The notes under the pieces are model-generated. The model did not search any database, was not told the origin of the DNA, and saw only the letters and a program-made list of their open reading frames with translations. This document shows, piece after piece, positions 18,974 to 50,528 of a DNA stretch of 64,000 nt; positions within the stretch are counted from its first letter, which is position 1; the number at the start of each line of letters is the position of its first letter. This stretch comes from Longimicrobium sp. (GTDB taxonomy: Bacteria; Gemmatimonadota; Gemmatimonadetes; Longimicrobiales; Longimicrobiaceae). The stretch is from positions 62,001 to 126,000 of the forward strand of contig NZ_DATIND010000149.1 of NCBI RefSeq assembly GCF_035474595.1, written 5' to 3'. Made by a program: the position numbers and the translations under genes.

Positions 18974-18977
18974 TGTC

Positions 18978-24993: not shown

Positions 24994-24994
24994 C

Positions 24995-29051: not shown

Positions 29052-30605
29052 ATGAAAAAATCCAAAGTCCTCTTCTTTGCCGCAGACCCGCATTCCGTCG
29101 GGGACGGAGGCACGCCAAGGCTTCAGCTGGACGTGGAGGTACGGGAGATCCGTCAGCGGGTGAGCACGGCCAGCTACCGCGACGATCTTGACTTCGATAC
29201 GCGCTGGGCCGCGCGCCCGGGCGACCTGCTGCAGGCCCTGGACGAAACCCATCCTCAGGTCGTGCACTTCAGCGGGCATTGCGGTGATGCCGGTCTGGTG
29301 CTCGTGGGCTCCGAGGCGTCTCACGGGCACTGCGTGGGCGCTTCGGCGCTCGCACAGCTGTTCCAGGCCTATCGCGGCGACATCCGGGTCGTCGTGCTGA
29401 ACGCATGCCTTTCCCTTCCACAGGCCAGGGCGATCGCCGCGGTCGTGGGGTGCGCCATCGGCACCCGCACCGAAATCACGGACGCGGCTGCGATTACCTT
29501 CAGCTCCTCGTTCTACCGCACCATCGCGTTCGGCAATTCCGTCCAAACCGCTTTTGACAAGGCGCGTGCAGCGCTGGCGGTGGAGCACTTCGAAGAGCGG
29601 GAGTGCCCACAGTTGGTGGTGCGTCCAGGGCTGGACGCCTCGAAAGTGTTCGTGGTCAGGCCGAAGCGAAGGCGGGCGGGGTTGGCGGCAGCTGGGCTCG
29701 TGGGTGCGGTGCTGGTCGGGGTGAAACTGCTTCACGGTGGAGGGGGAGAGCCGTTCTCGGCCTGCGCCTGGGCCGGAGCACCCCACGCGCTCATGGCGCC
29801 GTCCGGGTCTTCGACGGCGGGACCGCCAGGGGTGCAGTCGGATCTCGATCGGGCGAAGCTGGACTACGAAGCGGGGCGGTATGCCGCGGCGTTCCCCGTC
29901 TTCAGGCGCCTTGCGAAGAGCGGGAACCCCGAAGCAATGGGATTTCTCGGAGTCATGTTTTTGCGGGGGCAGGGAACCAGGGCATACCCCGACTCGGGGG
30001 TCCACTGGCTGCACGAGGCGGCGGAGAGGGACGATGCGCGTGGAATGACCGAGCTGGGCTCCGCGTACCAGAACGGAGACGGGGTGAAGCGCAACCGGGG
30101 TTGGGCTCGGCACTGGCTGCACAAGGCCGCAGATGAAAAGCGCTGGGCGGACGCGATGCGCAGGCTGGGCGCCATCTACCGGGACGAGCAAAACTATGGG
30201 ACCGCGCTAACCTGGTTCCAGAATGCCGTGAAGGCGGGATCGCTGGACGCCCGGATCGAGACCGGTGAGTTGTACGAGCGGGGCCAGGGCACCCCTCAAG
30301 ACCTGGAGGCGGCATTCTGCCTCTACCGCACGGCCGCGGAGGCAGGTTCGGTCCGCGGGATGCTCATCATGGGCCGGACCTACCGGAACGGGATCGGCGT
30401 GCCCCGAAGCTATGACCGGGCGGCGGGGTGGTACCGGAAAGCCGCGGCCGCAGGCTCCCCCGAAGGGATGTACGCGCTGGGCGAACTGTACCTGGACGGC
30501 CTGGGCGTGCCACGTGACACCGCCCAGGCAGACCTGTGGTTCGGAAGGGCGAAGAACGCGGGTTACAGGATCGCGGAAGGCAGGGTCGTCCCGGGAGCGG
30601 ACTGA
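29052..30605 (+). CDS. CHAT-domain protease with TM segment and SEL1 repeats
   Basis: A 517-residue protein. Residues 1-210 are a CHAT peptidase close to the one at 11545 (start KSKVLFFAADP), with catalytic His76 (VHFSGHC) and Cys119 (VVLNACLS). One TM helix follows (AGLAAAGLVGAVLVGVKLL, about 218-236). The rest is six to seven SEL1/TPR-like 36-residue repeats (AMGFLGVMFLRGQGT, GMTELGSAYQNGDGV, ARIETGELYERGQGT, GMLIMGRTYRNGIGV, GMYALGELYLDGLGV). SEL1 repeats bind proteins or peptides, so the periplasmic part is probably a sensor. Its last 43 bases overlap the small gene on the opposite strand. Confidence 0.85.
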   Translation: MKKSKVLFFAADPHSVGDGGTPRLQLDVEVREIRQRVSTASYRDDLDFDTRWAARPGDLLQALDETHPQVVHFSGHCGDAGLVLVGSEASHGHCVGASALAQLFQAYRGDIRVVVLNACLSLPQARAIAAVVGCAIGTRTEITDAAAITFSSSFYRTIAFGNSVQTAFDKARAALAVEHFEERECPQLVVRPGLDASKVFVVRPKRRRAGLAAAGLVGAVLVGVKLLHGGGGEPFSACAWAGAPHALMAPSGSSTAGPPGVQSDLDRAKLDYEAGRYAAAFPVFRRLAKSGNPEAMGFLGVMFLRGQGTRAYPDSGVHWLHEAAERDDARGMTELGSAYQNGDGVKRNRGWARHWLHKAADEKRWADAMRRLGAIYRDEQNYGTALTWFQNAVKAGSLDARIETGELYERGQGTPQDLEAAFCLYRTAAEAGSVRGMLIMGRTYRNGIGVPRSYDRAAGWYRKAAAAGSPEGMYALGELYLDGLGVPRDTAQADLWFGRAKNAGYRIAEGRVVPGAD

Positions 30606-30781
30606 TCCGTCGGCGCCATCGGGGACAGCGCGTCCACCGACGCTTCGCTGGCGGACCGCACCGAGCCGTCCGCCAGCACCCCCTCGGCGGCGAGCGACAC
30701 GATCATGTGCTGCAGCTGGGCGGCGGCGGCACCTTCGTTGTTCGCGATGTTCGCGGTGAATGGAATGACGCGATATTGCAT
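30563..30781 (-). CDS. Small DUF4177-like protein, last gene of operon 2
   Basis: A 72-residue protein beginning MQYRVIPFTANIANNEG, with AAAAQLQHMIVSLAAEG following. This resembles the N-terminal strand and helix of small DUF4177-type proteins, which usually continue with a second strand (GWEYV); here that part is replaced by a Ser/Ala-rich tail. The stop lies 43 bases inside the end of the opposite-strand CHAT-SEL1 gene. It starts 51 bases after the sensor NTPase gene. Confidence 0.5.
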   Translation of the reverse strand: MQYRVIPFTANIANNEGAAAAQLQHMIVSLAAEGVLADGSVRSASEASVDALSPMAPTDQSAPGTTLPSAIL

Positions 30782-30831
30782 GGTCTTCCTCCCGATGAAG
30801 GGCTGGATGAGCTGCGGGGAACGCGGCGGTA

Positions 30832-33315
30832 TCACACCCGCACCGACGCGGCGAAGGCGCGCATCCCGCGGTCGTCGCCGGTGAACTCGGGGCCGGCGAG
30901 CAGGCTCAGCAGGGGGTCGCGCAGGACGCCGTCGTGCGTGCTCGCCAGCGACTCGAAGAGGCCTCGCATGGCATCGGCGTGCTCGGGGACCGGAAGCGCG
31001 TCGCGCACCCAGTCCACCAGGTGCGCCTGCAGGCTCTCCAGGCAGTAGCGCTGCAGGTGCGGCGAGGCCGCGAAAGGAGTTCGCAGGCTCTCGTACATCT
31101 CGCCCAGAAACCGCGCCGTCTGCCGGACCTCGGCCTCTCCTTCGACCAGGGACGCCACCAGCGGATTGCACGATGCGCCGGGTCCGCCTTCCACCGGGGC
31201 CGTATCCACCGGCGGCTCCTTGAGCTGGTCGGCGATCCCGCGCTCGTGCAGGAACATGAGCGCCACCACCACGCCCGCCTGCCACCCGCCGTCGGCGATC
31301 CACCTGCGCAGCTCCGTGAACACGGGCACCGGGCCGCGCGTGGCGCACAGCGACGCCACGGAGAACTGCACGCCCAGGAACGCGCGGTCCTGCCCGGCGT
31401 AGATGTGCGATGCCACGCCGCGCAGCACGGCCCGGCACGACCTCAGCACCGCCGCACCGCGCGCGGACGGCTTCTGGCCGGTGGCGCGCTCCACCTTCCC
31501 GAGCAGGCGCTCGATGCATTGGGTGTCTTCGATCATGGGCACCAGTCGCTCGCGCGCGATGGCGCCCAGCTCGCGCATGGCCAGGGACAGGTCGTGGTCG
31601 CCCACCCACGACCAAGCCGCGATCACGGCCGGGAGGTGCGCGTCGGGCTCCTCGTCCGACGACGCGGCGCGCTGCAGCGCCCGCAGGTGGCGCAGGCACG
31701 CGTCGCGGTAGCGCTCGGCCCGGCTGGCCAGCACGCCGTCCATCAGCGCGCCCAGCGCGGCCCGCCGCTGCTGGCTTCCCGAGTGCGCCCACCGGTCCAT
31801 CAGGGGAAGCGTGATGCGAGCCGCGTCCATCTCACCGATGCGGCCCAGGACGCGCGCGGCCAGCACGCGCAGCGTCTGCAGCTCCTCGTCGCCCCGCTCG
31901 GCCAGGGTGCGCAGCCCGGGGGTCACGGTGAGCAGCGCGCGGCGGTGGCGGTCGAGCATCGCCTTCCACATCCCTTCCGGCGGCGCGCCGTCGCGGAAGC
32001 GGACGGTGTGCGACAGCGCTCCGGCCTCCACCTCGGCGTGCGCGCGCTTGAGCAGGCGCGTGTCGGAGAACTCCAGCCGTGTGTCGGCATCGGCATCGGC
32101 GTCCACGCCGGCGCCCTGCGCGTCGGCGTAGCGCAGGTTCAGGTCGCGCCGCAGCCACTGGCGCACGTGCCGGTGCAGCCGGTCTACATCGACCCAAGGC
32201 ACCCCGCCCGCCTCACCCCCGCATTGCGCCAGCGCCAGGGTGAACGCGAACGACCACCCCTCGAAGTCGCCGTCCAGGTCCTGGAGGATCCTCCCGTCGG
32301 CGTTCTGCATGCGGCGCCACGCCTCCTCCAGCCCGAACCCGGGGGTCGCCAGCTCCAGGTACTGGTCCACGAACTCGAGCACCTGCGGCGCGTAGCGGAA
32401 GGTCGCGAGCAGCCACTCGCGCCCCTCTCGCAGCGCGGCCAGCTGTTCTGCGTCGACGCCGTCTGTGCCCGCGAGCGTATCCAGCTTCCGCTCCAGCTCG
32501 TCGGCCAGAAGGTCGGGCGGGTGCGGGGAGAGCCGGCGGTGCACGCCCTGCGCGGCCTGCAGCTCCTCCACCCGGCCGGCGCCGCCGGGGTCGGTGGTGA
32601 ACACCACGTACGCGCCGCGCGCTCGGAGCTGCTCGCCCAGCTGCTGCCAGCCGGACCGGTCGGTAGTCTCGAACAGTCGCGTGACGTCGGGGTCGGCGCG
32701 CGAGAAGGCGTTGGGGAAGATCACCAGACGGTTCCTGAAGCCGTGGTCGCGGGTGGCGAGGTGGCGCACGTCGATGCGAACCTTGCGGTCCAGCGACTCG
32801 GCGAGCAGCGTCGCCTCCATGCAGCGCCCCCGCTGGCGCAGGTGCCACCCCAGGTACAGCGCCGTCTTCACCTTGCCGGCCCCGCGCTCGGCGGTGAGCA
32901 GGAGCACGCGCCGCTCCTCCAGGTGCCTGAGCAGCTCGTCCACCTCCGCGTCCGTCCCGCGGAAGCTCAGCGCGCTCTCCTGCTCCCACTGCGGAGGCAC
33001 CGGCTCCACCTCCGCGCACGAGAAGCGGCGGGTGGCCGATCGGGCCTGGTAGAGCTCGAAGACCTGGCGCTCGACGTTGATGCCGATGCTGCGCTGGTCG
33101 AGGTTGTCGACCTCCAACCGGCCCTCGAAGTAGTTGTTCTGCGTGGGGCCGACGCCGGGCGGCGGGGCGCCGTTCCCAGCTCCTCCACCCTCCGCCGGAC
33201 TCCCCGTCCCGGCGGAGGGTGGAGCGGGGGGTGAAGAAGGGGAGGAAGGCTGGGACGGAGGAGGAGGGGAGGGGGGAGGGGCGGGCTTCTCCGGGCCGGC
33301 GGTCGGGTCGGACAT
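30832..33315 (-). CDS. Large STAND-like sensor NTPase with degenerate Walker A
   Basis: An 827-residue protein. The N-terminal 60 residues are Pro/Ser-rich and end in TQNNYFEGRLEV, a short strand often found before NTPase domains of conflict proteins. The P-loop is LTAERGAGKVKTALYLG (140-156): GAGK is present, but the first Gly is Ala and the Ser/Thr after Lys is Val, so nucleotide binding may be altered. Segments such as RGAYVVFTTDPGG suggest Walker B/sensor strands. The C-terminal half (about 400-827) is helical, probably HEAT/TPR-like. Start at 33315 is favoured by GGAG 9 bases upstream; an ATG at 33330 is possible. It stands in the sensor position of operon 2. Confidence 0.6.
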   Translation of the reverse strand: MSDPTAGPEKPAPPPSPPPPSQPSSPSSPPAPPSAGTGSPAEGGGAGNGAPPPGVGPTQNNYFEGRLEVDNLDQRSIGINVERQVFELYQARSATRRFSCAEVEPVPPQWEQESALSFRGTDAEVDELLRHLEERRVLLLTAERGAGKVKTALYLGWHLRQRGRCMEATLLAESLDRKVRIDVRHLATRDHGFRNRLVIFPNAFSRADPDVTRLFETTDRSGWQQLGEQLRARGAYVVFTTDPGGAGRVEELQAAQGVHRRLSPHPPDLLADELERKLDTLAGTDGVDAEQLAALREGREWLLATFRYAPQVLEFVDQYLELATPGFGLEEAWRRMQNADGRILQDLDGDFEGWSFAFTLALAQCGGEAGGVPWVDVDRLHRHVRQWLRRDLNLRYADAQGAGVDADADADTRLEFSDTRLLKRAHAEVEAGALSHTVRFRDGAPPEGMWKAMLDRHRRALLTVTPGLRTLAERGDEELQTLRVLAARVLGRIGEMDAARITLPLMDRWAHSGSQQRRAALGALMDGVLASRAERYRDACLRHLRALQRAASSDEEPDAHLPAVIAAWSWVGDHDLSLAMRELGAIARERLVPMIEDTQCIERLLGKVERATGQKPSARGAAVLRSCRAVLRGVASHIYAGQDRAFLGVQFSVASLCATRGPVPVFTELRRWIADGGWQAGVVVALMFLHERGIADQLKEPPVDTAPVEGGPGASCNPLVASLVEGEAEVRQTARFLGEMYESLRTPFAASPHLQRYCLESLQAHLVDWVRDALPVPEHADAMRGLFESLASTHDGVLRDPLLSLLAGPEFTGDDRGMRAFAASVRV

Positions 33316-33353
33316 CGAAGGGATCTCCATGATTGAGGCAGGCTTGCGCCGTT

Positions 33354-34523
33354 TCAGCCGCGCAACGACCGTTCGAGCTCCGCCGGGTCGCACAGGGTGC
33401 GCAGGGCATCGAGCTCGTGCGGCACCAGGCTGCGCTCCAGCGAGGCGAACAGCTGGTGCGCGCGGTCGGCGTACCGCGTGCGCATTGCCGGTTCGGCCAG
33501 GTCTTCGAGCAGCACCTCGGCGACCAGGTGCAGCAGCGCCGAGCGCAGCTCCAGGCGCCTTCCCGAGCCGCTGACGTTCTGCGTGGCCCAAACGACCTGC
33601 TGCAGCAGCGCCGACAACCCGCCGGTCCCCGGCGTGAGCGCGGCGTTGGTCGAGGTGTCGGGCACGGAGAGCATGCCGGGCGTCGCGCCAGGGGTGCCTA
33701 CGGGGTGGATGCCTCCCTGGAACACCGCCCGGAACTCGTCGGGCGTGGAAACCTCGCCCGCCACCGCTCCGATGGCGCGGATGCGGCCGTCCACCGCGGC
33801 GGCACGGATCCGTGCGGTGTCGCGCACGTCCTGCGCGGCCGTGTCCATGTCGGCGCTTCCCAGCGTGTGCAGGTTCGCCGCATCGCCGATCCGACGCGCG
33901 CTGTCCATCCCGGCTACGGTAACGCGCTCGCCGCGTCTGATCTTGTCCAGTTCGCGCTCTTCCTCGGCCGCGGGTCTGGTGGCCTCTTCAGGAAGGAGCC
34001 TTCCAACCTCCACCGTCCTGAGGACGATGCCGTACGCGGCCGCGAAGGCCCTCAGCTCCGGCAGCCTGTGCCGCAGAACCTCCTGCGCGGAGACCGCGAA
34101 TCCGAACACGATCTCCGTCCACTGCAGCTGCCTGACGTCGCGGCCGATCACCTGGCGCGCGCGCTCAGAGACCAGCCCGAGCGGATCGCGGTTGCGGAGG
34201 CTGGCCAGCAGGTGCGGGTCGCTCACCGAGTAGTACAGGTCCAGGAGAAGGTCGAAGCGGTGCGCTTCCTCGTCCTCGAGCACCACGTGCTGGTTGACGT
34301 CCAGGTGCAGGTCCGGCGATGCGTCCACCGCGATGGCGAAGAACCGCCCCTGCGGCCAGAGCCGCTCCAGCAGCCCCCGTTTCAGCGGCGTGCCGGGAGG
34401 AAGGATGGTCCGAAACTTCTCGCCCGACTCGCCCACCCGCTCGAACACCACCACGTTGTGCCCCTCCAGCGGCTCGGCGGGGTGGTCCCTCACCAGGCGC
34501 TCCTCGAAGGTCTGATTGCTCAT
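33354..34523 (-). CDS. SPFH/band-7-like protein
   Basis: A 389-residue protein without a clear TM segment. Residues about 80-200 (HVVLEDEEAHRFDLLLDLYYSV, shortened, LGLVSERARQVIGRDVRQLQWTEI and LRAFAAAYGIVLRTVEVGRLLP) match the pattern of the stomatin/prohibitin SPFH domain, including the late GI.L..VEV strand. The middle is Ala-rich and the C-terminus helical. SPFH proteins scaffold membrane assemblies. It overlaps the helical gene upstream by 4 bases, next to the MotB-like gene. No known partner proteases of the NfeD type are present. Confidence 0.6.
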   Translation of the reverse strand: MSNQTFEERLVRDHPAEPLEGHNVVVFERVGESGEKFRTILPPGTPLKRGLLERLWPQGRFFAIAVDASPDLHLDVNQHVVLEDEEAHRFDLLLDLYYSVSDPHLLASLRNRDPLGLVSERARQVIGRDVRQLQWTEIVFGFAVSAQEVLRHRLPELRAFAAAYGIVLRTVEVGRLLPEEATRPAAEEERELDKIRRGERVTVAGMDSARRIGDAANLHTLGSADMDTAAQDVRDTARIRAAAVDGRIRAIGAVAGEVSTPDEFRAVFQGGIHPVGTPGATPGMLSVPDTSTNAALTPGTGGLSALLQQVVWATQNVSGSGRRLELRSALLHLVAEVLLEDLAEPAMRTRYADRAHQLFASLERSLVPHELDALRTLCDPAELERSLRG

Positions 34524-35542
34524 CGTTTTCTTAGGTTGATGAAGTCAGTGTACGCCTCTCGACCGGCTCCTTCGCTTCCCCGTGCCCCGGCAGTCGCCCC
34601 TGCGTCCAGCAGGGCGCGCGCGTGTTCAATGCGGTCGCGCTGCGCGGCTACCCGGCGCATCCCGGCCTCCACCCGCGAGCGCCAGAGCGCGGCGGTGGCC
34701 CACGCCCACGCCTCCGGCCCCGCGCCCGCCGCCGTGCCGCGCAGCACGGCAGCGTCGTCGGGGCTCTGCGCGCCGGCGCGGCACAGTTCGCGGTGCAGCC
34801 GGCCGCGCGCCGCCAGCGAGAACGCCACCTCGTCGGCCATCCGCTCCGCCAGCGCAACGAGGCCGTCGCGCGCGAGCGCCGCCACCGCTTCCAGGCTGCC
34901 GTCCGCCACGGGATCGGCCTCGTTCTCGCCCGCCAGGGCGCGCGTGCTGGCGCAGAGCGAGCGGACCTCGTCGATACGCGCCTCCAGCGCCTCCCGGCGC
35001 GCGGCCGACGCGCGCTCGCGACGCTCGAGCGGCGAGGATTCGGCGAGAGACGCCTCCGCCAGGTACCGGGCCTGGGCGTAGCGCTTCGCCGCCGTGCGCG
35101 CGCGCGCCGCCGCCAGCAGCTCCGCGGGCGCCTGGATGCAGGGAAGAGCGCGCAGCCGGGGCACCCGCGCGTGGTCGTGCAGCCTTTCCACGGCCTTGGC
35201 CGCCTGATCGATCCTGGCGGCCGCCTGCACCAGCGCCTGCATGGTCGCCAGCGTCCTGCGTCCGCGAAGGATCTCGTCCAGCGCGGCGCGGAAGTGCTCG
35301 CCGCGGAGCGCGTCGTCGGCGCGGGCGCGGAAGGCGTCGCGGCCGGCCAGAAGCGCCGGGTCATGCCGGCGCACCGCGGGCACGCCGGCCTCCAGCGCGG
35401 TGAAGTCGCGCGCGGCGCGCAGGTACGCCGCGCGGAACAGCCGCTTGATGCGCCGGTCGGACAGCTGCCCGTATTCGAAGCGCCAGATGGCACGGCGCAG
35501 CGCGGTGTCGTCGGTACGGAGGCTCTCAGGAGGCGGGCTCAT
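34520..35542 (-). CDS. Helical protein of unknown function, operon 2
   Basis: A 340-residue, almost entirely helical protein rich in Ala, Arg and Glu, with likely coiled coils (RREALEARIDEVRSLCAS, RVAAQRDRIEHARALLDA). No motif, signal or TM segment is seen. It overlaps the MotB-like gene and the SPFH-like gene by 4 bases on each side. This position between the motor and the SPFH-like gene parallels the 705-residue protein beside the motor of operon 1, suggesting an adaptor role; that is inference only. Confidence 0.6.
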   Translation of the reverse strand: MSPPPESLRTDDTALRRAIWRFEYGQLSDRRIKRLFRAAYLRAARDFTALEAGVPAVRRHDPALLAGRDAFRARADDALRGEHFRAALDEILRGRRTLATMQALVQAAARIDQAAKAVERLHDHARVPRLRALPCIQAPAELLAAARARTAAKRYAQARYLAEASLAESSPLERRERASAARREALEARIDEVRSLCASTRALAGENEADPVADGSLEAVAALARDGLVALAERMADEVAFSLAARGRLHRELCRAGAQSPDDAAVLRGTAAGAGPEAWAWATAALWRSRVEAGMRRVAAQRDRIEHARALLDAGATAGARGSEGAGREAYTDFINLRKR

Positions 35543-36192
35543 GGTGCCCCCGCGGCGGCGCTGGCCAAGCGGCCGGAGAAGTAGATGCGGAGCTCGATCC
35601 GCCGGTTGCGGCTGCGATGCCCGCTCACCGGGCGGTTCTGGGCGTAGCCGTTCACCGACATCCGCCGCTCCTCAAGCGGCCGTGCGCCGCGGGTCAGGAA
35701 GCGCATCACAGCGGTGGCGCGCGCGGTGGAGAGTTCCCAGTTGTCGCGCGGGTAGGCGGGGCGTCGGAAGGGGAGATCGTCGGTGTGGCCCTCGATCTGG
35801 ATCTGCTCGTACAGGAGGCCGGCCCCCTGGCCGTCCACCCGGTGGAACACGTCGCGCAGCCGCCGCAGCAGCGCGGCGCCGCGCGGGTGCAGCTCGTAGC
35901 TGCCGGGCTCGAACAGCACCCCGTCGCCGAAGCGGATCTGCAGCAGGTTCAGGTCGGTAGAGTCGGCCACCTGGCCCGCCGCGATTTCGGCGGCGAACTC
36001 CTGGTGCAGCACGGACACGAACAGCGCCTGCTTCTGCCGGGCGATCGCCAGCTGCGCGCTCGCCGAGCCGAAGTTGCTCTCCACGAAATAGATGAGCAGG
36101 AAGAACATCAGCATCGACGTGAGCATGTCGATGAGGCCAGGCCAGTAGTGGACGCGGGTATTCACCAGGTTTTCCGCGAGCGCGCGCTTCAT
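35539..36192 (-). CDS. MotB/OmpA-like motor stator subunit (ZorB-like), operon 2
   Basis: A 217-residue protein. The single TM helix is LIDMLTSMLMFFLLIYFV with Asp22 at the ion-pathway position. A plug-like helix follows, then an OmpA/MotB domain: GSYELHPRGAALLRRLRDVF, QIQIEGHTDDLPF, NWELSTARATAVMRFL and RSRNRRIELRIYF. Unlike the operon 1 copy it has the canonical GHTDD and NRRIEL motifs. It overlaps the helical gene by 4 bases and starts 16 bases after the MotA-like gene stop. Confidence 0.88.
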   Translation of the reverse strand: MKRALAENLVNTRVHYWPGLIDMLTSMLMFFLLIYFVESNFGSASAQLAIARQKQALFVSVLHQEFAAEIAAGQVADSTDLNLLQIRFGDGVLFEPGSYELHPRGAALLRRLRDVFHRVDGQGAGLLYEQIQIEGHTDDLPFRRPAYPRDNWELSTARATAVMRFLTRGARPLEERRMSVNGYAQNRPVSGHRSRNRRIELRIYFSGRLASAAAGAP

Positions 36193-36208
36193 TGCAGGGC
36201 ACTCCGGG

Positions 36209-37357
36209 TCAGAAGAGGAAGACCAGCAGCGCCGCGAGCGCGCCCGCGCCCAGCAGCGCCGGGAGCGGGTTGCGCCGCGCGAGGGTAAGTCCGTCGTCCA
36301 CCCACGCGCCCACGCTCGCGCGCCGCAGCGGCACCTCCTGGCGCTGGTGCACCGCGCGCATCGCCACCGACTCCGCCACCTTCACCAGCGCGTCGTTGGC
36401 GTCGGCGAGCTGCTTCACCAGGGCGGTGAGCGCGCCCGCCGCCTCCTCCGCGGGTCCGCGCGCGGACTGCTGCGTGATCGCGCGGATGCTGCCGACGATG
36501 GCGCCGAACGCGTCCTGCATCTCCTGCAGCCGCTCCAGGTTGCCGGCCTGGTGCTCCGACAGGCTGCCCAGGCTGGCGAAGGTGTCGCTCAGCTGCAGCG
36601 ACAGCTTTTCCATCGCTGTCTCGTCCTCCACCGTGGCCACGGTGGCGGGGAGCAGCTCCTCGGTGGTGAACCGCTCCAGCGCGTCGTAGCACGCCGACTG
36701 CGCGCGGGCGAGGAGAAAGTTCAGGAACGAGACGGCGATGGCGCACGAGAGCCCTACCAGCGTGGTGACGAACGCCGTCTTCTTGCTGGCGATAATGCCG
36801 CCCAGGCTCTGGGCCGCCTCGGCGAACCCGCCCGCCGCCGGCACGCCGGAGGCGCTGGGGAGCACCCCCTGCATCTGCAGCAGCATCAGGCACAGCCCCA
36901 CGAAGGTGCCCAGCATCCCCAGCATCATCGCCAGGTCCACCGCGTAGGCGGGAAACGCGAGTCCCGGACTGGCGTTCTCGCGCAGCAGGGTGATCTGCTG
37001 CAGCGCCTCGACGTTCACCTTCACCCGTGCCTGCTTCATTCGCGCGAGGGCGGCCAGGCGGTCGCCGATCAGGGTGCCGGGCGGCACGTTCTCGCGCAGC
37101 TCGGCCAGGTCTACCGGCGCCGGCGCGGCGGGGCGGCTTCCCTCCGGCTCCCCGGCCTCTTCGCGATCCCGGATCCCGCGCAGCTTCGCGCGTACGCTGT
37201 CCAGCGCGTGCCGCTCCACGCTGCGGTAGCGGTGCAGGTGCCGCAGCGCCGCGGCCGCCGCGGTGCCGCCAAGGGCGAAGAGCATCAGCAGGATCAGGCG
37301 GCCGATGCCCGTGTTCTGCTGCCAGAGCAGGCCGAGGAGGCCGTGGTTGGTGGTCAT
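36209..37357 (-). CDS. MotA/TolQ/ExbB-like motor subunit (ZorA-like), operon 2
   Basis: A 382-residue membrane protein with TM helices near 17-38, 136-160 (MMLGMLGTFVGLCLMLLQ) and 192-217 (FVTTLVGLSCAIAVSF), the typical ExbB/MotA pore helices. A final hydrophobic segment (LLGAGALAALLVFLF) closes the protein. Residues 230-330 form a helical tail (LSLQLSDTFASLGSLSEHQ, shortened), shorter than that of the operon 1 copy. With the MotB-like gene it should build an ion-driven unit whose tail reaches into the cytoplasm, close to the CHAT and SPFH-like proteins of the same operon. Confidence 0.85.
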   Translation of the reverse strand: MTTNHGLLGLLWQQNTGIGRLILLMLFALGGTAAAAALRHLHRYRSVERHALDSVRAKLRGIRDREEAGEPEGSRPAAPAPVDLAELRENVPPGTLIGDRLAALARMKQARVKVNVEALQQITLLRENASPGLAFPAYAVDLAMMLGMLGTFVGLCLMLLQMQGVLPSASGVPAAGGFAEAAQSLGGIIASKKTAFVTTLVGLSCAIAVSFLNFLLARAQSACYDALERFTTEELLPATVATVEDETAMEKLSLQLSDTFASLGSLSEHQAGNLERLQEMQDAFGAIVGSIRAITQQSARGPAEEAAGALTALVKQLADANDALVKVAESVAMRAVHQRQEVPLRRASVGAWVDDGLTLARRNPLPALLGAGALAALLVFLF

Positions 37358-37391
37358 GGTCGGGTGATACGCGGAGACGGATGGACGCAGA

Positions 37392-38192
37392 TCAGCGGGA
37401 CCCGCCGGCCCGGAAGGTGAAGCGGTTTCCGGAGGCGTTGCCGAAGCGGTTTTCCTGCTTCTCGTTCCCGGAGCCGGGAGCGACTTCGAAGAGCGCGTCG
37501 TCTCCGCGGAACGTTTCGAAGACGTTCACCTGGCGGGCATCGGCCGGCTGCGCGCTCCCGCCGTCCGGCAAGCGGGCTTCGGCCGGCGGCGTGACGAGGG
37601 GCACCGCCGGGTCCACGCCGGGGCGGACGCGCAGCACGGGGATGGCGGCCTCGACGTTCCCTTCGAGCTCGAGCTGGCTGATGGCGAGCTCGAACGATGC
37701 CTGCACCGTCTGCCCCATCGCCAGCGCGCCGTAGAAGGCCTGCGCGAAGACGACCGCCGACGGATCGGTGAGGGGCCGGTTCATCCCGATGGCGTAGTCC
37801 ACCACCTCGCCCAGCGCCTCGACGATGGGCAGGGTGTCGCACCCGTTCAGGAACACCACGCGGATACACTCGCGCAGGATGCCGAACAGCTTCGCCAGCG
37901 CCTCCTTTCCCACCGGGCGCGGCCGGCCGTGCTCGTCGCCCAGGTAGAGCACGCCGGTGCCTCCGCCGTGGCCGGCGAAGTGCACGATCTGCGGGTCGTG
38001 CCGCAGCAGCGCGTCCTGCAGGTCGCGCCTGCGCGTGGCGAAGCACGCCACCAGCTCCACCCGGTCGCGTGCGCTTCCCTTCCGGATGGCATGGTCCATG
38101 GCGCGCACCTCCTCGTCGAGCCGCAGCGGCGCCCGGTCGCGGAACGGGTCCGACGCCAGGAACAGCACCTTGATCTTGTCCATCATGCGCAT
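37392..38192 (-). CDS. CHAT-domain protease, soluble, operon 2
   Basis: A 266-residue protein of the same CHAT family as 11545 and 29052: start KIKVLFLASDP, LRLDEEVRAMDHAI, catalytic His75 (IVHFAGHGG) and Cys118 (VVFLNGCDT). Unlike the other two it lacks a TM segment and ends in a disordered tail (SAQPADARQVNVFETF). It is thus probably cytosolic. GGAGG stands 4 bases before the ATG at 38192; ATG codons at 38186 and 38183 are also possible. It lies between the motor genes and the caspase-like gene, so it is a candidate executioner. Confidence 0.88.
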   Translation of the reverse strand: MRMMDKIKVLFLASDPFRDRAPLRLDEEVRAMDHAIRKGSARDRVELVACFATRRRDLQDALLRHDPQIVHFAGHGGGTGVLYLGDEHGRPRPVGKEALAKLFGILRECIRVVFLNGCDTLPIVEALGEVVDYAIGMNRPLTDPSAVVFAQAFYGALAMGQTVQASFELAISQLELEGNVEAAIPVLRVRPGVDPAVPLVTPPAEARLPDGGSAQPADARQVNVFETFRGDDALFEVAPGSGNEKQENRFGNASGNRFTFRAGGSR

Positions 38193-38264
38193 CTTTCCTC
38201 CCAGATTGGCTTTAAGAGCGCTGCTGCGCGTGTCGTTCGTCTGGTGTCGGGAGCGCGGCTCCGG

Positions 38265-39104
38265 TCAGTCCCGCCACCCTCCGCGCATCACCGGACGGTC
38301 CAGGTGAAACGCCATCTCCAGCGGGAAGTCGGGGTCGGGCGTTCCCAGCATCATGATCTGCGGCTCCTGCTGCGGGTTCTCGTACCGCACGCATTCGCAC
38401 AGACGCCCGTGCAGCGCGCAGAAGCTGTCGCGGAACGCTCCGCCCTTCCAGAGCTCCAGCAGGTGGCGGGTGTAAAGTCCCTCCCGCGCCCTCTGCCCTT
38501 CGGCTGCGCCCGTCATCATCAGCACGCTGGCCCTGATCCCGTCGTCGTGAGAGGGCGCGCGCGAGATGCACGACGCCACCGGCTGCGCGAACTGCTTCAC
38601 CCCCCGCAGCACCGGTTCGGCGGAGCGGTAGACGGGCCGGTCCAGGGCGGGCGACAGGTTGGGATACCGGGCCATCACGTCGCCGTAGCGGCCCATCCCA
38701 CCGCCGAAGCAGCTCTCGCTCACGACCAGCACGCGCGTTCCGGGCGCCGCCACCCTCCAGATCGCCGCAAGCTCGTCGTCGATCAGGTCGGCGTCGTGCA
38801 GGCACCACGTCTCGTCCCACCCGTCCCGCTCGTCGCCGTCCGCGTCGGGCACGTGCGAGCCATGGCCCGAGAAGGAGACGAAAAGGGTGTGGCCGGGCTC
38901 CAGCGCCCGCGCGGCGGCGGAGAGAAGGCCGCCGACCGCGTTCCGGGTGGCGTCGGCGCCGCGCAGCACGTGGATGGCGCCGTAGCCCGCCTGGTGTGCG
39001 AGCTCCGCCATCTTCCACGCATTCTCTTCGCTCAGTGACAGCGGGCACTCGCTGGTCGAGGCCGGATGGTTCACTCCGATGTGGATCGAGGTACCGCGTG
39101 CCAT
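38265..39104 (-). CDS. Caspase-like (peptidase C14/metacaspase) protease
   Basis: A 279-residue protein. The p20-like domain shows SIHIGVNHP at the start, catalytic His81 in FVSFSGHGSHVPD followed by DGDERDGWDETW, and catalytic Cys132 in VVSESCFGGG. This order is that of metacaspase-type C14 peptidases, which cut after Arg or Lys; acidic residues around the pocket (DETW, DDE) fit. C-terminal sequence (LDRPVMRGGWRD) is unremarkable. A second, distinct clan CD protease beside a CHAT protease in one operon is unusual. Start at 39104 gives the family N-terminus. Confidence 0.85.
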   Translation of the reverse strand: MARGTSIHIGVNHPASTSECPLSLSEENAWKMAELAHQAGYGAIHVLRGADATRNAVGGLLSAAARALEPGHTLFVSFSGHGSHVPDADGDERDGWDETWCLHDADLIDDELAAIWRVAAPGTRVLVVSESCFGGGMGRYGDVMARYPNLSPALDRPVYRSAEPVLRGVKQFAQPVASCISRAPSHDDGIRASVLMMTGAAEGQRAREGLYTRHLLELWKGGAFRDSFCALHGRLCECVRYENPQQEPQIMMLGTPDPDFPLEMAFHLDRPVMRGGWRD

Positions 39105-39166
39105 GGCCGGTCTCCGGGCGTGGGGGCGGGCCGCCGCAGACACGGCGGCACCGGATCGAGCCTGGA

Positions 39167-40006
39167 TCAGCCGCCCCCCCCGCCGCTGACGCCGGCGACC
39201 AGGCAGGTGTACGGCATCCCGCCCATGTCGGGGGGAATGGCCTCGCACGGGTTGGCGAGCGGCGGGCAGTCAGCCAGCTTTCCCCAGTACCGGGGGAGCA
39301 CGGTGGGGACGGGCCCGCCGAAAAGGGTGTAGTAGGCGGAGAAGTGGTGTGGGGTGAAGCCCGGCGCGGGAACCGGCTGGCGGGCGACGGGGAGCGGCTC
39401 CGGCGGCAGGTCTTGCGTGGTCTCGTGATACATGACCAAGTTCACCCGGCCGTTCATGGGGAACAAGGTTCCCAGCGCCTTCTGCTCGCCGCCTCCGCCG
39501 ATGGGTTCAGACACCAGCGTGAGCTGCTCGCCCTCCACGTCGGAGATCTCCCACTCCACCCGGTGCGCGATCGGGCGGAACTCGCCGGGGCGCCACTCCC
39601 AGCACACCCCCGGCGACACTCGCGTGATCCGCCCGGCGCCCAGCGTCATGCGTGCCGTCAGCTTTTTCCCCGTGTCGGAGCCCAGGTGGTCGGGGTCCAC
39701 CGCGCGTTGCGTGATCTCGCGCAGGTCCACGATGTGGCTGCACAAGGCGAGGTCGGCTTCGTCGCCGGCCACGGGTGTCACCTGCCGGCCCGAAAGCGGG
39801 GCCATGGCGGTGATGCCGGTGGGCGTACCCGCTGCCGCCAGGTGCCCCGTGTCGAACGCCAGTGCCGCCACGTGCCGGTCTGCCCCGCAGTGGTCGCCGA
39901 ACATCCCCGGCATCAGCACGTGCATCCGGCCGGTGTTTCCGCCGCTGGCGGGCTCGGGCACGAAGAGGCAAAGTCCCGAGAACGTGATCCGAAGGGTGAA
40001 GGCCAT
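39167..40006 (-). CDS. Unknown 279-residue protein, first gene of operon 2
   Basis: The protein begins MAFTLRITFSGLCLFVPE and is strand-rich throughout, with ARMTLGAGRITRVS, WEISDVEGEQLTLVSEP and VNLVMYHETT segments, suggesting a beta-sandwich. Cys residues are scattered. There is no signal peptide or TM segment. I do not recognise the family. It is 62 bases upstream of the caspase-like gene, so it may be its substrate, inhibitor or sensor. Confidence 0.6.
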   Translation of the reverse strand: MAFTLRITFSGLCLFVPEPASGGNTGRMHVLMPGMFGDHCGADRHVAALAFDTGHLAAAGTPTGITAMAPLSGRQVTPVAGDEADLALCSHIVDLREITQRAVDPDHLGSDTGKKLTARMTLGAGRITRVSPGVCWEWRPGEFRPIAHRVEWEISDVEGEQLTLVSEPIGGGGEQKALGTLFPMNGRVNLVMYHETTQDLPPEPLPVARQPVPAPGFTPHHFSAYYTLFGGPVPTVLPRYWGKLADCPPLANPCEAIPPDMGGMPYTCLVAGVSGGGGG

Positions 40007-40089
40007 CGTCTTTGCAGCCTTGTCTGAGGGTGGTCTTTCCATTCCGCGGGACGCGGACCCCGGCCGTCGTCCGGGTGCGGCACATTCGT

Positions 40090-40117
40090 CGGACGGGCCT
40101 TCCGCGATTCCCGTCCG
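40090..40117. promoter_or_regulatory. Inverted repeat in the divergent operon 2/sigma-factor region
   Basis: CGGACGGG and CCCGTCCG are separated by 12 bases in the 176-base gap between the two divergent genes. It could be an operator, but such repeats also occur by chance at this GC content. Confidence 0.3.
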
Positions 40118-40182
40118 CCGTCCTCTGGAGTGCTCTCCCGTCTGGCGTGCCGCGCGATCCAACGTTTTGCGGGCGGCTGCAG

Positions 40183-40968
40183 ATGCTTGACCGCGAGGCC
40201 GCCGAGGCGCTCTTCCTGAAGCACCTCGACTGGGTCGACAAGGTCGCCTCCATTGCCTGCAGCAATCATGGCGTCTGGGGCGCCGACGCCGAAGACTTCG
40301 CTGCCTGGGTGCGGATGAAGCTGGTGGAGGACGACTACGCCGTGGTGCGCCGCTTCCGCGGCGATTCCGAGATCAAGACGTACCTGGCGTCCGTGGTCGT
40401 CCGGCACTTCGTCAACTTCAATCGCGCGCAGCGGGGCCGCTGGCGTATTTCGGCGGCGGCGGAGCGGCTGGGCGCGCCCGCGGCGGACGTCGAGACGCTG
40501 GTGCGCCGCGACGGCTACACCCTGCAGCAGGCGGGGGAGAAGCTGCGCACCGCGGGCCGCACCACGCTCTCGGACGCCGAGCTCGCGCGCCTGCTCGATC
40601 AGCTGCCCGAGCGTGCGCCGCTGCGCCCCGTCGTGGGAGAGCCGGCTACGGGGCTGGATGGCGCGCCCGGCGCCTCGCGTGCGGACGAGCGGGTGATCGA
40701 GGCCGAGGCCGAGGGTCGGCGCGCGGAGATGCTGGGTGCGCTCGGGACGGCCATGGAGCAGTTGGAACTGGAGGAGCAGCTGATCGTGCAACTGCACTTT
40801 GCCGAGGGGCACACCCTGGCCGACGTGGCCCGTGCCCTGCGCCTGGAGCAGAAACCGCTGTACCGGCGCGTCGAGCGCCTGCGCGTCCGGTTGCGCGCGG
40901 TCCTGGAAAGCGCAGGGTTGGGCGGAGACGACGTGCGGGGCCTCCTTTACGAGCTTGACGCACCATGA
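40183..40968 (+). CDS. Sigma-70 family (ECF-like) RNA polymerase sigma factor
   Basis: A 261-residue protein. Region 2 is visible at the N-terminus (LFLKHLDWVDKVASIAC, DAEDFAAWVRMKLVED, FRGDSEIKTYLASVVVRHFVNF, shortened), region 4 at the C-terminus (LELEEQLIVQLHFAEGHTLADVARAL, shortened, then LRLEQKPLYRRVERLRVRL). Between them lies an insert of about 90 residues (residues 100-190) with its own helical segments (LQQAGEKLRT), longer than in usual ECF factors. It would direct polymerase to a small regulon, plausibly this island. It is divergent from operon 2 and followed by an anti-sigma-like gene. Confidence 0.8.
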   Translation: MLDREAAEALFLKHLDWVDKVASIACSNHGVWGADAEDFAAWVRMKLVEDDYAVVRRFRGDSEIKTYLASVVVRHFVNFNRAQRGRWRISAAAERLGAPAADVETLVRRDGYTLQQAGEKLRTAGRTTLSDAELARLLDQLPERAPLRPVVGEPATGLDGAPGASRADERVIEAEAEGRRAEMLGALGTAMEQLELEEQLIVQLHFAEGHTLADVARALRLEQKPLYRRVERLRVRLRAVLESAGLGGDDVRGLLYELDAP

Positions 40969-41014
40969 GCGAGCGAAATCGCGGGCGCCGAGAGTCCCTG
41001 GCGGGAGGTTGCCG

Positions 41015-42022
41015 GTGAGCGATCACGGGAGCGACGACGAGCGGCTGGCCGCCTTCCTGGATGGCCGGATGGACGTTCGCAGCCGAAAAGAGATGCTGGC
41101 CCACCTGACCGGGAGCGACGAGGACCGCGCGGTCCTCGCCGGCACCGCGGCCATCCTGCGCCAGCTGGAAGAGGCGGGCGCCGGCGCACCGGGGCAGGCG
41201 TCTGCAGCCGCGTCAGGTCTGGAGTCTGTGGACAGGGTCGTGGCGGAGGGCGTGATCCCCCTGGACACGCGCCGCACCTCGCGGCCCGAGCCCGATCACA
41301 AGGTCCGTCCGACGCGCGCGCCGGTCCTCCGGTGGATGGCTGCTGCGGCGGCGGTGGTGGGCATCGCGCTGATCACCGGACGTGCGCTGCGCACCCGCGC
41401 CTCCGTCGCCGGCGAGCCGGTGCGCCTCGTCACGCGGCTGGCGCACGGCGCCGAGGGGCTGCCCGCGGGGTGGACCGAGCGGCGGCCGTGGACGTCCGTG
41501 CGCGGAGACGACCGGGGCGGCGCCACGTCACCCGGCGAGCGGTTGGCGAGATCCGCACGTGCCGGCGCGATGCTGGTGGACCTCGCCGTGGCAGTGCAGG
41601 CGCGCGACGCCGCGGCAACGCGGGTGCTCGCGATCCAGCTCGCCGGCCGTTTCGATCCACAGGGAGGACGCAGCGGCGCGCTCCGCAGGATCGCCGACGG
41701 CGCGGCGGGGAGCCCGGAGCGGCTGCGGCCGCTGATCGGCGAGGCCACGGAGCGGATCGCAAAGCGGCTGGACCGGGACGCGCTACGGCTGGGCGCCTGG
41801 ACCGAGGCTGCGGGGCTGGCCGCCGCGTGGCAGGACGCCGGCTTCTTCCGCGGCGGCGAGACGCGCCGGATGCTCGACCAGGCCGGGCGGCTGACCGCAG
41901 CGGATCCGCCGGCCCACGCGGCGGTGCAGCAGGTGCGGCTTCTGCTGGCGGCCGATCCCCTGCGATGGGAGGCGCTCGCACCCGCGATCGACGCGTTGGC
42001 CCGCGAGCTCGCGAGCGAGTGA
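41015..42022 (+). CDS. Putative membrane anti-sigma factor
   Basis: A 335-residue protein starting at GTG 41015 with GGGAGG upstream. The N-terminal 60 residues (DERLAAFLDGRMDVRSRKEMLAHL, shortened) resemble an anti-sigma domain but lack the His/Cys zinc ligands of the ZAS type. One TM helix follows near 105-125 (WMAAAAAVVGIALITGRAL), then a helical outside region with Ala-rich repeats. Its place directly after a sigma factor supports an anti-sigma role; the sequence alone is weak evidence. Confidence 0.55.
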   Translation: MSDHGSDDERLAAFLDGRMDVRSRKEMLAHLTGSDEDRAVLAGTAAILRQLEEAGAGAPGQASAAASGLESVDRVVAEGVIPLDTRRTSRPEPDHKVRPTRAPVLRWMAAAAAVVGIALITGRALRTRASVAGEPVRLVTRLAHGAEGLPAGWTERRPWTSVRGDDRGGATSPGERLARSARAGAMLVDLAVAVQARDAAATRVLAIQLAGRFDPQGGRSGALRRIADGAAGSPERLRPLIGEATERIAKRLDRDALRLGAWTEAAGLAAAWQDAGFFRGGETRRMLDQAGRLTAADPPAHAAVQQVRLLLAADPLRWEALAPAIDALARELASE

Positions 42023-42089: not shown

Positions 42090-45000
42090 TCAGCTCCCGA
42101 TGTAGCGGAATCCGGCCCACGCCGCGGGGGAGTGCCGCGCGGGGTCGTTCGAGCGGAGCAACTCCAGCTGGGCCTCGCGCAACGCCGCGGCTGGGTCGGC
42201 CGAGCGGCGGTAGGCGCGATGGAACGCCAGCATCAATGGCTGCGTCAGCCGGTCGTCGGCCTCCCACAGCCTTCCCACCACCCCGCCCGCGCCCGCCGCC
42301 AGCAACGCACCGGAAAATCCCGCCAGCCCGCCCGAGCGCCCCTCGCGCGAGCGCACCGTCCGGCACGCCGCGAGCACAACCAGGCGCACGCCGCGGAGCT
42401 GGAGCGCGTTCACGGCTTCCGCCGTGAGGCGCCCGGTGGTGCCCGACCCCGCGAGCACCAGGGCCGACTGCTCCGGCCGGGCATCGTCGAACACCGCATG
42501 GCCGGCGTAGTGAATGACGCTGGCTCCCGGTGCGCGGTCGCGCAGGGCGTCGCGCGTAGCGGCGGGGCCCTGGAGCACCACGCTCGCCCTGTACATCATG
42601 CGAAGCGAGTCGACCTCCGCCCGCGCGCCACGAAGTCTGTCGAGCGTGGGATACTGCGTCGGGTCGAACGCAGGGTCGGCCACGAGCAGCGCAGGGGCCG
42701 ACCGGTCGGCTGGGGGTGCGGACCGGGCTGCTTCGGCCAGGGTGGCGGCGAAGCGCAGCGGGTGATCTTGCACCAGATAGCGGGCCCGTCTGGCGTCCAG
42801 CAGGACGTCGAAGGGCACGCCGGCGATCTCGCCGTCCACGAGGATCACCAGCGGCGTCTCGGCCCGGCCGAGGCGGTTTTCGACCGGCCGCACCAGCAGC
42901 TCGTAAAGCCGGGCGAGGTCCGGGCGGGCGAACGCCGCCCGGGCCGGCGACTCCAGCGCGGCGACGCTCCGTTCGATCATCGTGAGGACGTTGCCGCGGC
43001 TGACGGTCCGACGCAGCAGGCGCACGTCGGTTCCGCGCAATGTCCACGTGAGCAGCGTGTCGCCGATCAGGGCGTACTCCACCGCCACCTGCCCGGGGGG
43101 TGCCGCAGGCAGGCCGGTACCCAGCGCGGAAGCCCCGTATCCGGGCGCGAACGAGACGCGGCCGCGCTCGACCGCCTGCAGCGCGGCGATGGTGTCGCCG
43201 GCGTGGAGGTGAAGCATCACCAGCTGGTCGAACCGGCTGCGCGCCTGCTCCATCACCGCCACACGTAACGAGGCGTCCCCAAGGCTCTGGGATAGCCCGT
43301 GAATGCGGGTGGTGGCGGCGTTCAGGTCGGCAGTTGCGGACGAGAGCTCCCGCCGCGCGAGCCGCACGTCGGCCCGCTGGAGGAGTGCGGGGAGAAGCCA
43401 CGCCGAGTTGCCGTCTTTGGTGAAAAAGGCCACAGCGGAGTCCAGGTCCGCCACCGATGCTGTGTCGGGGGCTACAAGTGCCCGCGAGTAACCGACTGTC
43501 CTCGTGAGCCACTTGCGAGGTCTCGAGGCGCGAATTGTCCTGACGAGCGAATCGGCGCGATACAAATCCTCTGACGCTTCCTCCTGTCGACCTCTGGCCC
43601 ACCGGGTACGAGCCCTGCCAAGCAGCGCCTCCACCAGGTGGCGCACCCGCTTCTCGCGCAGGGCCACGGAGACGTCTTCATCCTGAACGACCAAGGCCGC
43701 CCGTGGCATCTGATCGACCGTCGCGCAGTTCGCAAGCACCAGAAGCGTGTTGTGGAGCCGAACGGATGAACGATGCTCACGCAGCGACATCAGCCCGCGG
43801 TGCATCAAACGGTACGCGGCCAACGTGTCTCGTTGAGCGTAGGCCGCTTCCCCTTCCATCTGCCACTGTGCCGCTGTGTACTCGGTTTCACCCGCACGTT
43901 CGAACAGCCGGGCTGCGGCTTGGTACGCAGCGCGGGCTTCCGCGGGATGGCCGTTGCGAAGCAGCCCGGAACCTCTGATCCAGAGTGCACGCGCGACCAG
44001 CGCCGGGTTCCGTAGCGAATCGATCCGGAGCAGCACGGCTTGGAGCCTTGAATCCGCTTCGGCGAACTGCCCGTCGAAAATGAGTGTCGCGGCGCCAAAG
44101 ACTTCCGCCGAGCGCGTCAGAACTGGAGAGAACGGTGCCGCACGCGCCGCGCGGGCGAAGGAGTCTCGGGCGGCGGCGTGCTCCCCGCTTTCATTCAGCA
44201 CTTGACCTGCCGCGTAAGCGCGGTGCGCGCGGGCTAACAGGCGAGTCGCTGCTGGATCGTCCCTGACCGCCCGAATCGCTCGGACCGCGTCCGCGAGCGA
44301 GGCATCTCCACCGCGCGCTTCCAACGCGCCGCCCAGTTGTTCCGCGAGCTGCAGCAACTCCGCGGTCCGGGCCGGGTTCCCGGCCTCGTGCGCGCTCCCC
44401 CAGTCACCCAGCACCGAATCCCAGCCGTACAGCCGCGCCTCCTGCGGATTCGCCCCGGCGAACGCGCGCACCTCCGCTTCGGGAGCTCCGGGCTGGGGCG
44501 GCTCTTCGGTCATCGGGGGATGGCGAAGCAAGCTGCGCCGCTCCCGCGCCTCTTCGGCCCACCTGCTCGTCGAGTCGCTGCGCAGGTAGTCTGTCCAGGC
44601 GATCTTGGCCTGCTCATCCAGTCCCAGCGTTTGCAGCGCGAGAGCGGTGTTGAACCGCGCGGCCGGGTTGTGGGGCTCGGTGGCGACTGCCTCGAGTGCG
44701 TAGTTCAACCCTTCCAGCAGGTCGCGCGGATTCTGGGTGCGCTGGGCGCGGACGAGGTGCGCGGCCGACAGGTCGACCAGCAGCGGCACCCGCCGGCGCG
44801 AGAGCCGCAGCGCCCTGGACAGCCGGGTGATCGCCGCGCTGGCCGCCTGCTCCGTGTCGTCATCGCCGACGATCGCCAGCAGCGCCGATGCCTGAAGCGA
44901 ATCCGGATCGGAGCTTTCCCCCGCATCGGCCAGCGCCTCGAAGCCATCCAGTCGGCCGGCGTCGGCTCCGCACGATTCCCGGGGCACCGTTTCACCCGTC

Positions 45001-45227: not shown

Positions 45228-45350
45228 GTGTGCGTCACGGATGCGGGAACGTGAAGGAGATGGCAATGATGGAGAGGGAAGAAACCGCAGATCCCAGCGC
45301 AAAGGTGGGGCGCCTGGTTGGGGGAATCGCGCGCCGCCCGCCTCTTGGGA

Positions 45351-50479: not shown

Positions 50480-50528
50480 TCTGGCCTCCTGCAATGCTGG
50501 GGTCGTGCTGTGCCGGACCGGGCGGCCG

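What the first reader, a model, noticed from the sequence alone, without database searches (positions are those of the whole stretch)
30563..40006. Nine-gene operon joining CHAT and caspase-like proteases to a Zorya-like motor
The sequence shows, on one strand with four-base overlaps at several junctions: an unknown beta-rich protein, a caspase-like peptidase (His81/Cys132), a CHAT protease (His75/Cys118), MotA-like and MotB-like subunits, a helical protein, an SPFH-like protein, an 827-residue sensor NTPase with altered Walker A, and a 72-residue protein. In Zorya, ZorAB sense envelope perturbation and pass a signal through the ZorA tail; here the effector would be two different clan CD proteases. 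The usual Zorya effectors ZorC, ZorD and ZorE are not visible. I infer a system in which envelope or ion-flow change triggers a protease cascade.
Basis: partly seen in the sequence, partly recalled or inferred. Interest (0 to 1): 0.88.

Follow-up and report, generated by a model that had tools for sequence, protein, structure and literature searches.

The report
Motor-linked defence cassette with swappable effectors
This is a rare bacterial gene cluster in which a flagellar-type ion motor anchored to the cell wall travels with a membrane-scaffold protein, a receptor-like protein and an exchangeable self-destruct enzyme (a caspase-like protease here, a nucleotide-splitting enzyme in a relative); it suggests a new way for cells to turn envelope damage, such as phage attack, into a death signal.

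Summary
The nine frames are real and well placed, except that the 72-residue one is a truncated remnant (a deletion of about 330 bp relative to a sister genome). They are two modules, not one system. (1) A conserved core, MotA-MotB-helical protein-SPFH protein-degenerate AAA+/STAND-like protein, found in eight genomes of two phyla: six of one Gemmatimonadota family and two Bacteroidota. One gene slot just upstream of MotA is exchangeable: CHAT protease in five genomes, a decayed CHAT in one, a nucleosidase (PNP) in one, no effector seen in one. (2) Beta-rich protein plus caspase, part of a sigma/anti-sigma/TPR-CHAT cassette that also occurs without any motor elsewhere in the same genome; it sits beside the core in only three genomes. 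The motor resembles ZorAB (ion-site Asp, peptidoglycan-binding domain) but falls far below Zorya model cut-offs and has no ZorC/D/E/F/G; it has SPFH and AAA-like partners instead. Most likely it is an envelope-sensing, ion-motor-driven conflict (abortive-infection) system with swappable effectors. The CHAT-to-caspase cascade is possible but unproven. I found no description of this gene set in the held literature. Phage defence is inferred, not shown.

The parts
36209..37357 (-). MotA/ZorA-like ion-channel subunit (382 aa); TM helices near 20-38, 142-160, 199-217, coiled-coil-like stretch, then a C-terminal TM helix 364-382. Core gene.
   Evidence: PF01618 over cut-off; PADLOC ZorA1 1e-5; C-terminal TM in all seven members scanned.
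35539..36192 (-). MotB/ZorB-like subunit (217 aa), TM Asp22 and OmpA peptidoglycan-binding domain. Core gene.
   Evidence: OmpA 8e-14; PADLOC ZorB1 5e-21; D22, H136, R158, R197/R198 invariant in seven members; profile matches ZorB chains 8vvi, 8vvn, 8qyd.
34520..35542 (-). Helical protein (340 aa), no known family, fast-evolving. Core gene.
   Evidence: No Pfam/PADLOC/NCBIfam hit; same slot in all eight loci; alignment.
33354..34523 (-). SPFH (stomatin/prohibitin-like) protein, 389 aa, no TM helix. Core gene.
   Evidence: AF2 model (pLDDT 63) vs stomatin SPFH Z 12.6, FliL Z 8.9; Band_7 1.4e-4 in L021 orthologue.
30832..33315 (-). AAA+/STAND-like protein with degenerate Walker A plus C-terminal helical region (827 aa). 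Core gene.
   Evidence: AF2 model (pLDDT 65) residues 97-342 match AAA+ (Z 11.7) and Avs5 (Foldseek 2.9e-4); alignment.
37392..38192 (-). Short CHAT protease (266 aa), effector slot of the motor module; His75/Cys118.
   Evidence: PF12770 over cut-off; 8TL0 1.5e-15 with catalytic residues aligned; same slot in L015-L018, decayed in L019, replaced by PNP in L118.
38265..39104 (-). Caspase-like C14 peptidase (279 aa), His81/Cys132; second module.
   Evidence: PF00656 over cut-off; 3BIJ 2e-35; motor-free paralogue in L122.
39167..40006 (-). Unknown protein (279 aa) that accompanies the caspase; second module.
   Evidence: No family hit; conserved in L015, L016 and near a caspase in L122 (30% identity).
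40069..40968 (+). Divergent sigma-70-family factor; second module.
   Evidence: Weak Sigma70 region 4 hits; 80-81% identical in L015/L016; 43% identical paralogue in L122.
40799..42022 (+). Likely anti-sigma factor (true start inside the frame, uncertain); second module.
   Evidence: Weak zf-HC2 hit; position after sigma as in L122.
42090..45302 (-). Large TPR-type CHAT protein (1070 aa) with N-terminal TM-like stretch; second module.
   Evidence: PF12770 1.5e-57; same partner in L122 and L016.
30563..30781 (-). 72-aa frame, truncated remnant of a small gene intact in L016.
   Evidence: Translation and blastn show a jump of about 333 bp relative to L016 near window 30680.
29052..30605 (+). Convergent Sel1-repeat CHAT protein (517 aa); neighbour, conserved in L016.
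   Evidence: CHAT 2.6e-8, Sel1 3.8e-36; 64% identical in L016.

Best explanation
A conflict (abortive-infection-like) system built on a five-gene envelope-sensing core, MotA-MotB-helical-SPFH-AAA/STAND-like, that carries an exchangeable effector. Proposed mechanism: MotB's OmpA domain engages peptidoglycan when the wall is pushed or damaged; ions then flow through the MotA/MotB channel and turn the MotA ring; the movement passes through the MotA cytoplasmic helix (tethered at its end by a fourth TM helix) to an SPFH ring and the helical adaptor, which expose the AAA/STAND-like scaffold; the scaffold clusters the effector, perhaps through short G/N-rich beta motifs present on both; clustering activates it. 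In this genome the effector is a CHAT protease; in a Bacteroidota relative it is a PNP-type nucleosidase. In three genomes a second regulated cassette (sigma/anti-sigma/TPR-CHAT/beta/caspase) sits directly upstream and may act as an amplifier, CHAT cleaving the caspase or the anti-sigma. Shown: gene content, conservation, domain identities, intact catalytic and ion-site residues, effector exchange. Inferred: every signalling step and the phage trigger.
For: Same five genes in the same order and strand in six Gemmatimonadota and two Bacteroidota (in L015 the contig ends before the fifth gene), at only 28-29% MotA and 21% SPFH/AAA identity between phyla, so the association is old. The slot upstream of MotA holds CHAT (five loci), a decayed CHAT (L019, local score 87, 0 of 2000 shuffles) or PNP (PF01048 6.5e-20, PADLOC effector model 1.4e-12). 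PNP, caspase and other effectors are known to replace each other in bacterial conflict systems (PMC8195603). MotB keeps the Asp and peptidoglycan-binding residues whose counterparts Zorya needs (PMC11890865). SPFH fold confirmed. CHAT is closest to SAVED-CHAT, a CRISPR-linked protease. Shared effector-tail/scaffold-head similarity exceeds shuffles in L017 (p 0.006) and L018 (p 0.001) and in a motor-free CHAT pair of this genome (0 of 5000). Four of the genome's eight CHAT domains lie in this window.
Against: No phage-challenge or expression data. The core is rare and was not found on plasmids or viral contigs, unlike many mobile defence systems; three Gemmatimonadota copies partly share chromosomal flanks. 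The PNP swap rests on one locus at a contig edge. In the window itself the shared effector/scaffold motif is not significant (p 0.28). No solved or modelled complex.
Confidence: 0.55

Rival explanations
1. An envelope-stress or programmed-death/developmental system unrelated to phages: the motor monitors wall integrity, and the proteases (with the sigma/anti-sigma pair) execute a regulated stress or lysis programme.
For: Sigma/anti-sigma next to proteases in the window and in L122; chromosomal, not found on plasmids or viral contigs; SPFH-fold proteins such as FliL are normal stator partners.
Against: Effector exchange CHAT/PNP and patchy presence (6 of 21 family genomes; 2 of 388 in a Bacteroidota family draw) are typical of conflict systems; sigma/anti-sigma are absent from five of the eight loci.
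Confidence: 0.3
2. Two unrelated neighbours: a motor-CHAT system and a sigma/caspase cassette that merely lie side by side, with no protease cascade.
For: The cassette exists alone in L122; the core exists alone in L017-L019, L021, L118. The promoter/terminator scan did not resolve the junction.
Against: The same-strand caspase-CHAT junction (72 nt in the window) is kept in three genomes; CHAT-to-caspase activation has a precedent in type III CRISPR (recalled, not read here).
Confidence: 0.45
3. A further Zorya type, with CHAT/PNP replacing the nuclease effectors.
For: ZorB-model hits 5e-21 to 2e-26, ZorA-model hits; the MotA scan beyond this family reached Zorya III loci.
Against: 21 bits against NCBIfam cut-offs of 400-700; none of ZorC-G; extra SPFH, helical and AAA-like core genes; C-terminal TM instead of a free rod; tree placement unresolved.
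Confidence: 0.2

Closest known systems
Zorya (types I-III)
   Same: MotA/MotB-type ion motor with TM Asp and peptidoglycan-binding domain; presumed envelope trigger and recruited effector (PMC11890865).
   Different: No ZorC/D, ZorE, ZorF/G; effectors are protease or nucleosidase; constant SPFH, helical and AAA/STAND-like partners; MotA of about 380-400 aa with a C-terminal TM helix.
Antiviral STAND / effector-associated-domain NTPase systems (Avs; Kaur et al. 2020, 2021)
   Same: AAA/STAND-like scaffold with helical C-terminus; CHAT, caspase and PNP effectors that exchange.
   Different: Walker A degenerate; effector is a separate gene; a motor and an SPFH protein are part of the core.
BASS amyloid signalosomes (effector plus NLR, reviewed in PMC7889193)
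   Same: Adjacent effector (CHAT among them) and NLR-like gene carrying short similar G/N-rich motifs.
   Different: Motif similarity not significant in the window; a motor module is added.
SAVED-CHAT / Craspase TPR-CHAT proteases
   Same: CHAT fold and His/Cys dyad (8TL0 match).
   Different: No SAVED domain and no CRISPR genes in the operon; activation must come from other partners.
Flagellar MotAB with FliL
   Same: Stator-like pair together with an SPFH-fold partner.
   Different: No flagellar context; the SPFH protein has no TM helix and is predicted cytoplasmic; protease effector.

Membership tests
Zorya | ZorA/ZorB-type motor pair | tested here: met
   PADLOC ZorA1 1e-5, ZorB1 5e-21; profile matches solved ZorB chains.
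Zorya | Score above curated ZorA/ZorB cut-offs | tested here: not met
   NCBIfam ZorA2 21 bits vs 700, ZorB1 21 bits vs 400.
Zorya | ZorB TM Asp and peptidoglycan-binding residues | tested here: met
   D22, H136, R158, R197/R198 invariant; importance in Zorya from PMC11890865.
Zorya | Long rod-like ZorA cytoplasmic tail | tested here: inconclusive
   Short coiled-coil-like stretch followed by a C-terminal TM helix in all seven members scanned; no complex modelled.
Zorya | ZorC/D, ZorE or ZorF/G effector genes | tested here: not met
   No such hit among the operon genes; control Zorya III locus L034 does show DUF3348/DUF2894.
Zorya | Placement inside Zorya types in a tree | tested here: inconclusive
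   MotA groups with Zorya away from flagellar MotA, order unresolved; MotB has long branches.
CHAT proteases | CHAT domain with His/Cys dyad | tested here: met
C14 caspase-like peptidases | C14 domain with His/Cys dyad | tested here: met
   SCFGG stands where relatives have SCHSG.
SPFH | SPFH fold followed by long helices | tested here: met
   Model Z 12.6 to stomatin, helices 179-255; model pLDDT only 63.
STAND/Avs NTPases | Intact P-loop (Walker A) | tested here: not met
   GK kept in most, S/T lost in all six aligned.
STAND/Avs NTPases | AAA+/STAND core fold with C-terminal helical repeats | tested here: inconclusive
   AAA+ Z 11.7, Avs5 best Foldseek row; pLDDT 65.
BASS amyloid signalosome | Matching motif on effector and NLR | tested here: inconclusive
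   p 0.006 (L017), 0.001 (L018), 0.28 (window).
Anti-phage defence system | Protection against phage | not testable with these tools
   Needs experiment.

The most novel reading that the evidence does not exclude
A new kind of immune signalosome in which an ion-driven rotary motor, through an SPFH ring, switches a degenerate AAA/STAND scaffold that recruits interchangeable death effectors; here it has captured a sigma/caspase cassette, giving an envelope-triggered bacterial CHAT-to-caspase cascade.
Probability: 0.3. Interest if true: 0.9.

Novelty: new variant of a known kind. Interest (0 to 1): 0.74.

Why it matters
Zorya is the only motor-based defence known to me, and how its motor movement reaches the effector is an open question. 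A second gene context in which a ZorAB-like motor always travels with an SPFH protein, a helical protein and an AAA/STAND-like scaffold, and in which the effector is exchanged, names candidate transmission parts and makes the question testable. It would also link motor sensing to caspase-type cell death, a theme so far known from NLR and CRISPR routes.

Tried and rejected
Plasmid, viral-contig and sampled phylum, class and family searches gave no further core members beyond the eight; the one extra class-level MotA match (G154) is an unrelated ExbB-type locus near formate dehydrogenase-like genes. About 78 mostly Burkholderiales matches were considered as relatives: the one examined by Pfam is Zorya III (DUF3348-ZorA-ZorB-DUF2894), most others have the same long-MotA/MotB pair, and none shows CHAT, caspase or SPFH by tblastn with the window proteins. 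The idea that the 892-aa partner of the C157 CHAT is a motor-free relative of the 827-aa protein failed (hhalign probability 0.2%); only the motif arrangement is alike. A homotypic effector/scaffold motif in the window itself was tested and is not significant. The promoter/terminator scan was uninformative. Literature searches for the gene set returned nothing on it.
Full report
What is there. The window lies in a genome of 6.57 Mb in 163 contigs; the closest titled record is a Gemmatimonadota MAG. Family and solved-structure searches confirm the caspase (C14), the CHAT protease, MotA and MotB. Six of the eight gaps are 50 nt or less and the other two are 62 and 72 nt. Genes compared with their counterparts in L016 show dN/dS of 0.6 or less (the sigma value rests on 12 codons and should be ignored).

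The SPFH and AAA calls. No Pfam family matches the 389-aa or the 827-aa protein. An AlphaFold model of the first (pLDDT 63, seven sequences) has the strand-helix order of an SPFH domain followed by long helices and matches stomatin SPFH domains at Z 12.6 over 111 residues; the Bacteroidota orthologue hits Band_7 at 1.4e-4, just under the curated cut-off. The second model (pLDDT 65) has an AAA+-like domain at 97-342 (Z 11.7), with Avs5 as the best Foldseek row; its Walker A keeps GK in most members but not the following Ser/Thr.

Two modules. In the same family, 6 of 21 genomes carry the MotA. L015 and L016 show the same long arrangement as the window; L017, L018 and L019 carry only the motor module at another chromosomal place, with no beta, caspase or sigma genes. 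In the window's own genome a second copy of the other module (TPR-CHAT, beta, anti-sigma, sigma, caspase) stands at L122 with no motor genes. The 72-aa frame at its end is a remnant.

Core and exchangeable effector. A genome scan with the MotA alignment found a Saprospiraceae genome (L021) with MotA, MotB, helical, SPFH and AAA-like genes in the same order and strand and no CHAT or caspase next to them. A MotB search of that family found a second Bacteroidota genome (L118) with the same five genes, the last running off the contig. Immediately upstream of its MotA, at a 10-nt gap, is a 568-aa protein whose N-terminal domain is a PNP/nucleosidase (PF01048 6.5e-20; PADLOC effector model). This is the slot of CHAT in the Gemmatimonadota. 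In L019 the slot holds a decayed CHAT N-terminus. Exchange of caspase, PNP and other effectors around a constant sensor or switch is a recognised signature of bacterial conflict systems (PMC8195603). This is the main reason for reading the system as a conflict system.

How it may work. MotB has the TM Asp and the OmpA binding residues whose Zorya counterparts are needed for defence, and Zorya's motor recruits its effector after phage attack (PMC11890865). Every MotA scanned ends in a further TM helix, unlike the free rod of ZorA, so the movement would have to be read by a partner near the membrane. The SPFH protein, of a class that forms membrane rings and is alike in fold to the stator partner FliL, is the natural candidate. 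Effector tails and scaffold heads carry short G/N-rich repeats; pairs match above shuffles in L017 and L018 but not in the window, and a motor-free CHAT/partner pair in the same genome matches strongly. This resembles the bacterial amyloid motifs that link NLRs to effectors, CHAT among them (PMC7889193). All of this is inference.

Zorya membership. The pair scores far below the curated Zorya cut-offs, no Zorya effector gene is present, and the tree does not place it. It works like Zorya in part; it is not filed as Zorya.

Chance. Four of the genome's eight CHAT domains lie in this 64-kb window; for a fixed window this has probability about 6e-7, and with a scan bound about 3e-4, so the region is a protease-rich island. 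The five-gene order kept across two phyla at roughly 16-35% identity is not a chance arrangement.

Limits. Eight loci, two of them incomplete at contig ends; one PNP case; middling structure models; no experiments. Searches covered 1,996 genome draws (not all distinct), one pattern-based scan of 85,000 species, plasmids and viral contigs. The pattern-based scan did not return L118, so distant members are surely missed.

Noticed in passing
window 18311-26557 (-): A second MotA/MotB-like pair: MotB2 18311-18973 (OmpA 3e-12, ZorB1 1.6e-15) and MotA2 within 18978-20936 (about 595 aa, long coiled-coil tail, ZorA1 4e-6), with an MreB/FtsA-like actin-fold protein (21592-25185) and a protein that looks tubulin-like by eye (24995-26557, no Pfam hit). 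L016 has a close relative of the latter. Possibly a second, different motor-based system.
   Followed up: partly
window 11488-12996 (+), 29052-30605 (+), 42090-45302 (-): Three further CHAT proteins besides the one in the operon; four of the genome's eight CHAT domains are in this window.
   Followed up: partly
window 49301-53379 (-): Kinase-like, PP2C phosphatase and kinase-like genes in a row (PP2C_2 4e-7; PADLOC kinase models), resembling signalling triads of conflict systems.
   Followed up: no
window 46034-46924 (-): PD-(D/E)XK nuclease-family protein (PF04411 7e-25), neighbour of the sigma/CHAT cassette.
   Followed up: no
L123 7221-10852 (-) (own genome contig C157): Motor-free CHAT plus 892-aa partner with a C-terminal hydrophobic helix; both carry a motif like VxVxGxxNxTxVAGRDxxx (0 of 5000 shuffles reach the score), a candidate signalling-amyloid pair.
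   Followed up: partly
window 14092-16134 (-), 27165-28556 (-): Two proteins with DxSxS metal-site-like (vWA-type) stretches seen by eye, no Pfam hit.
   Followed up: no
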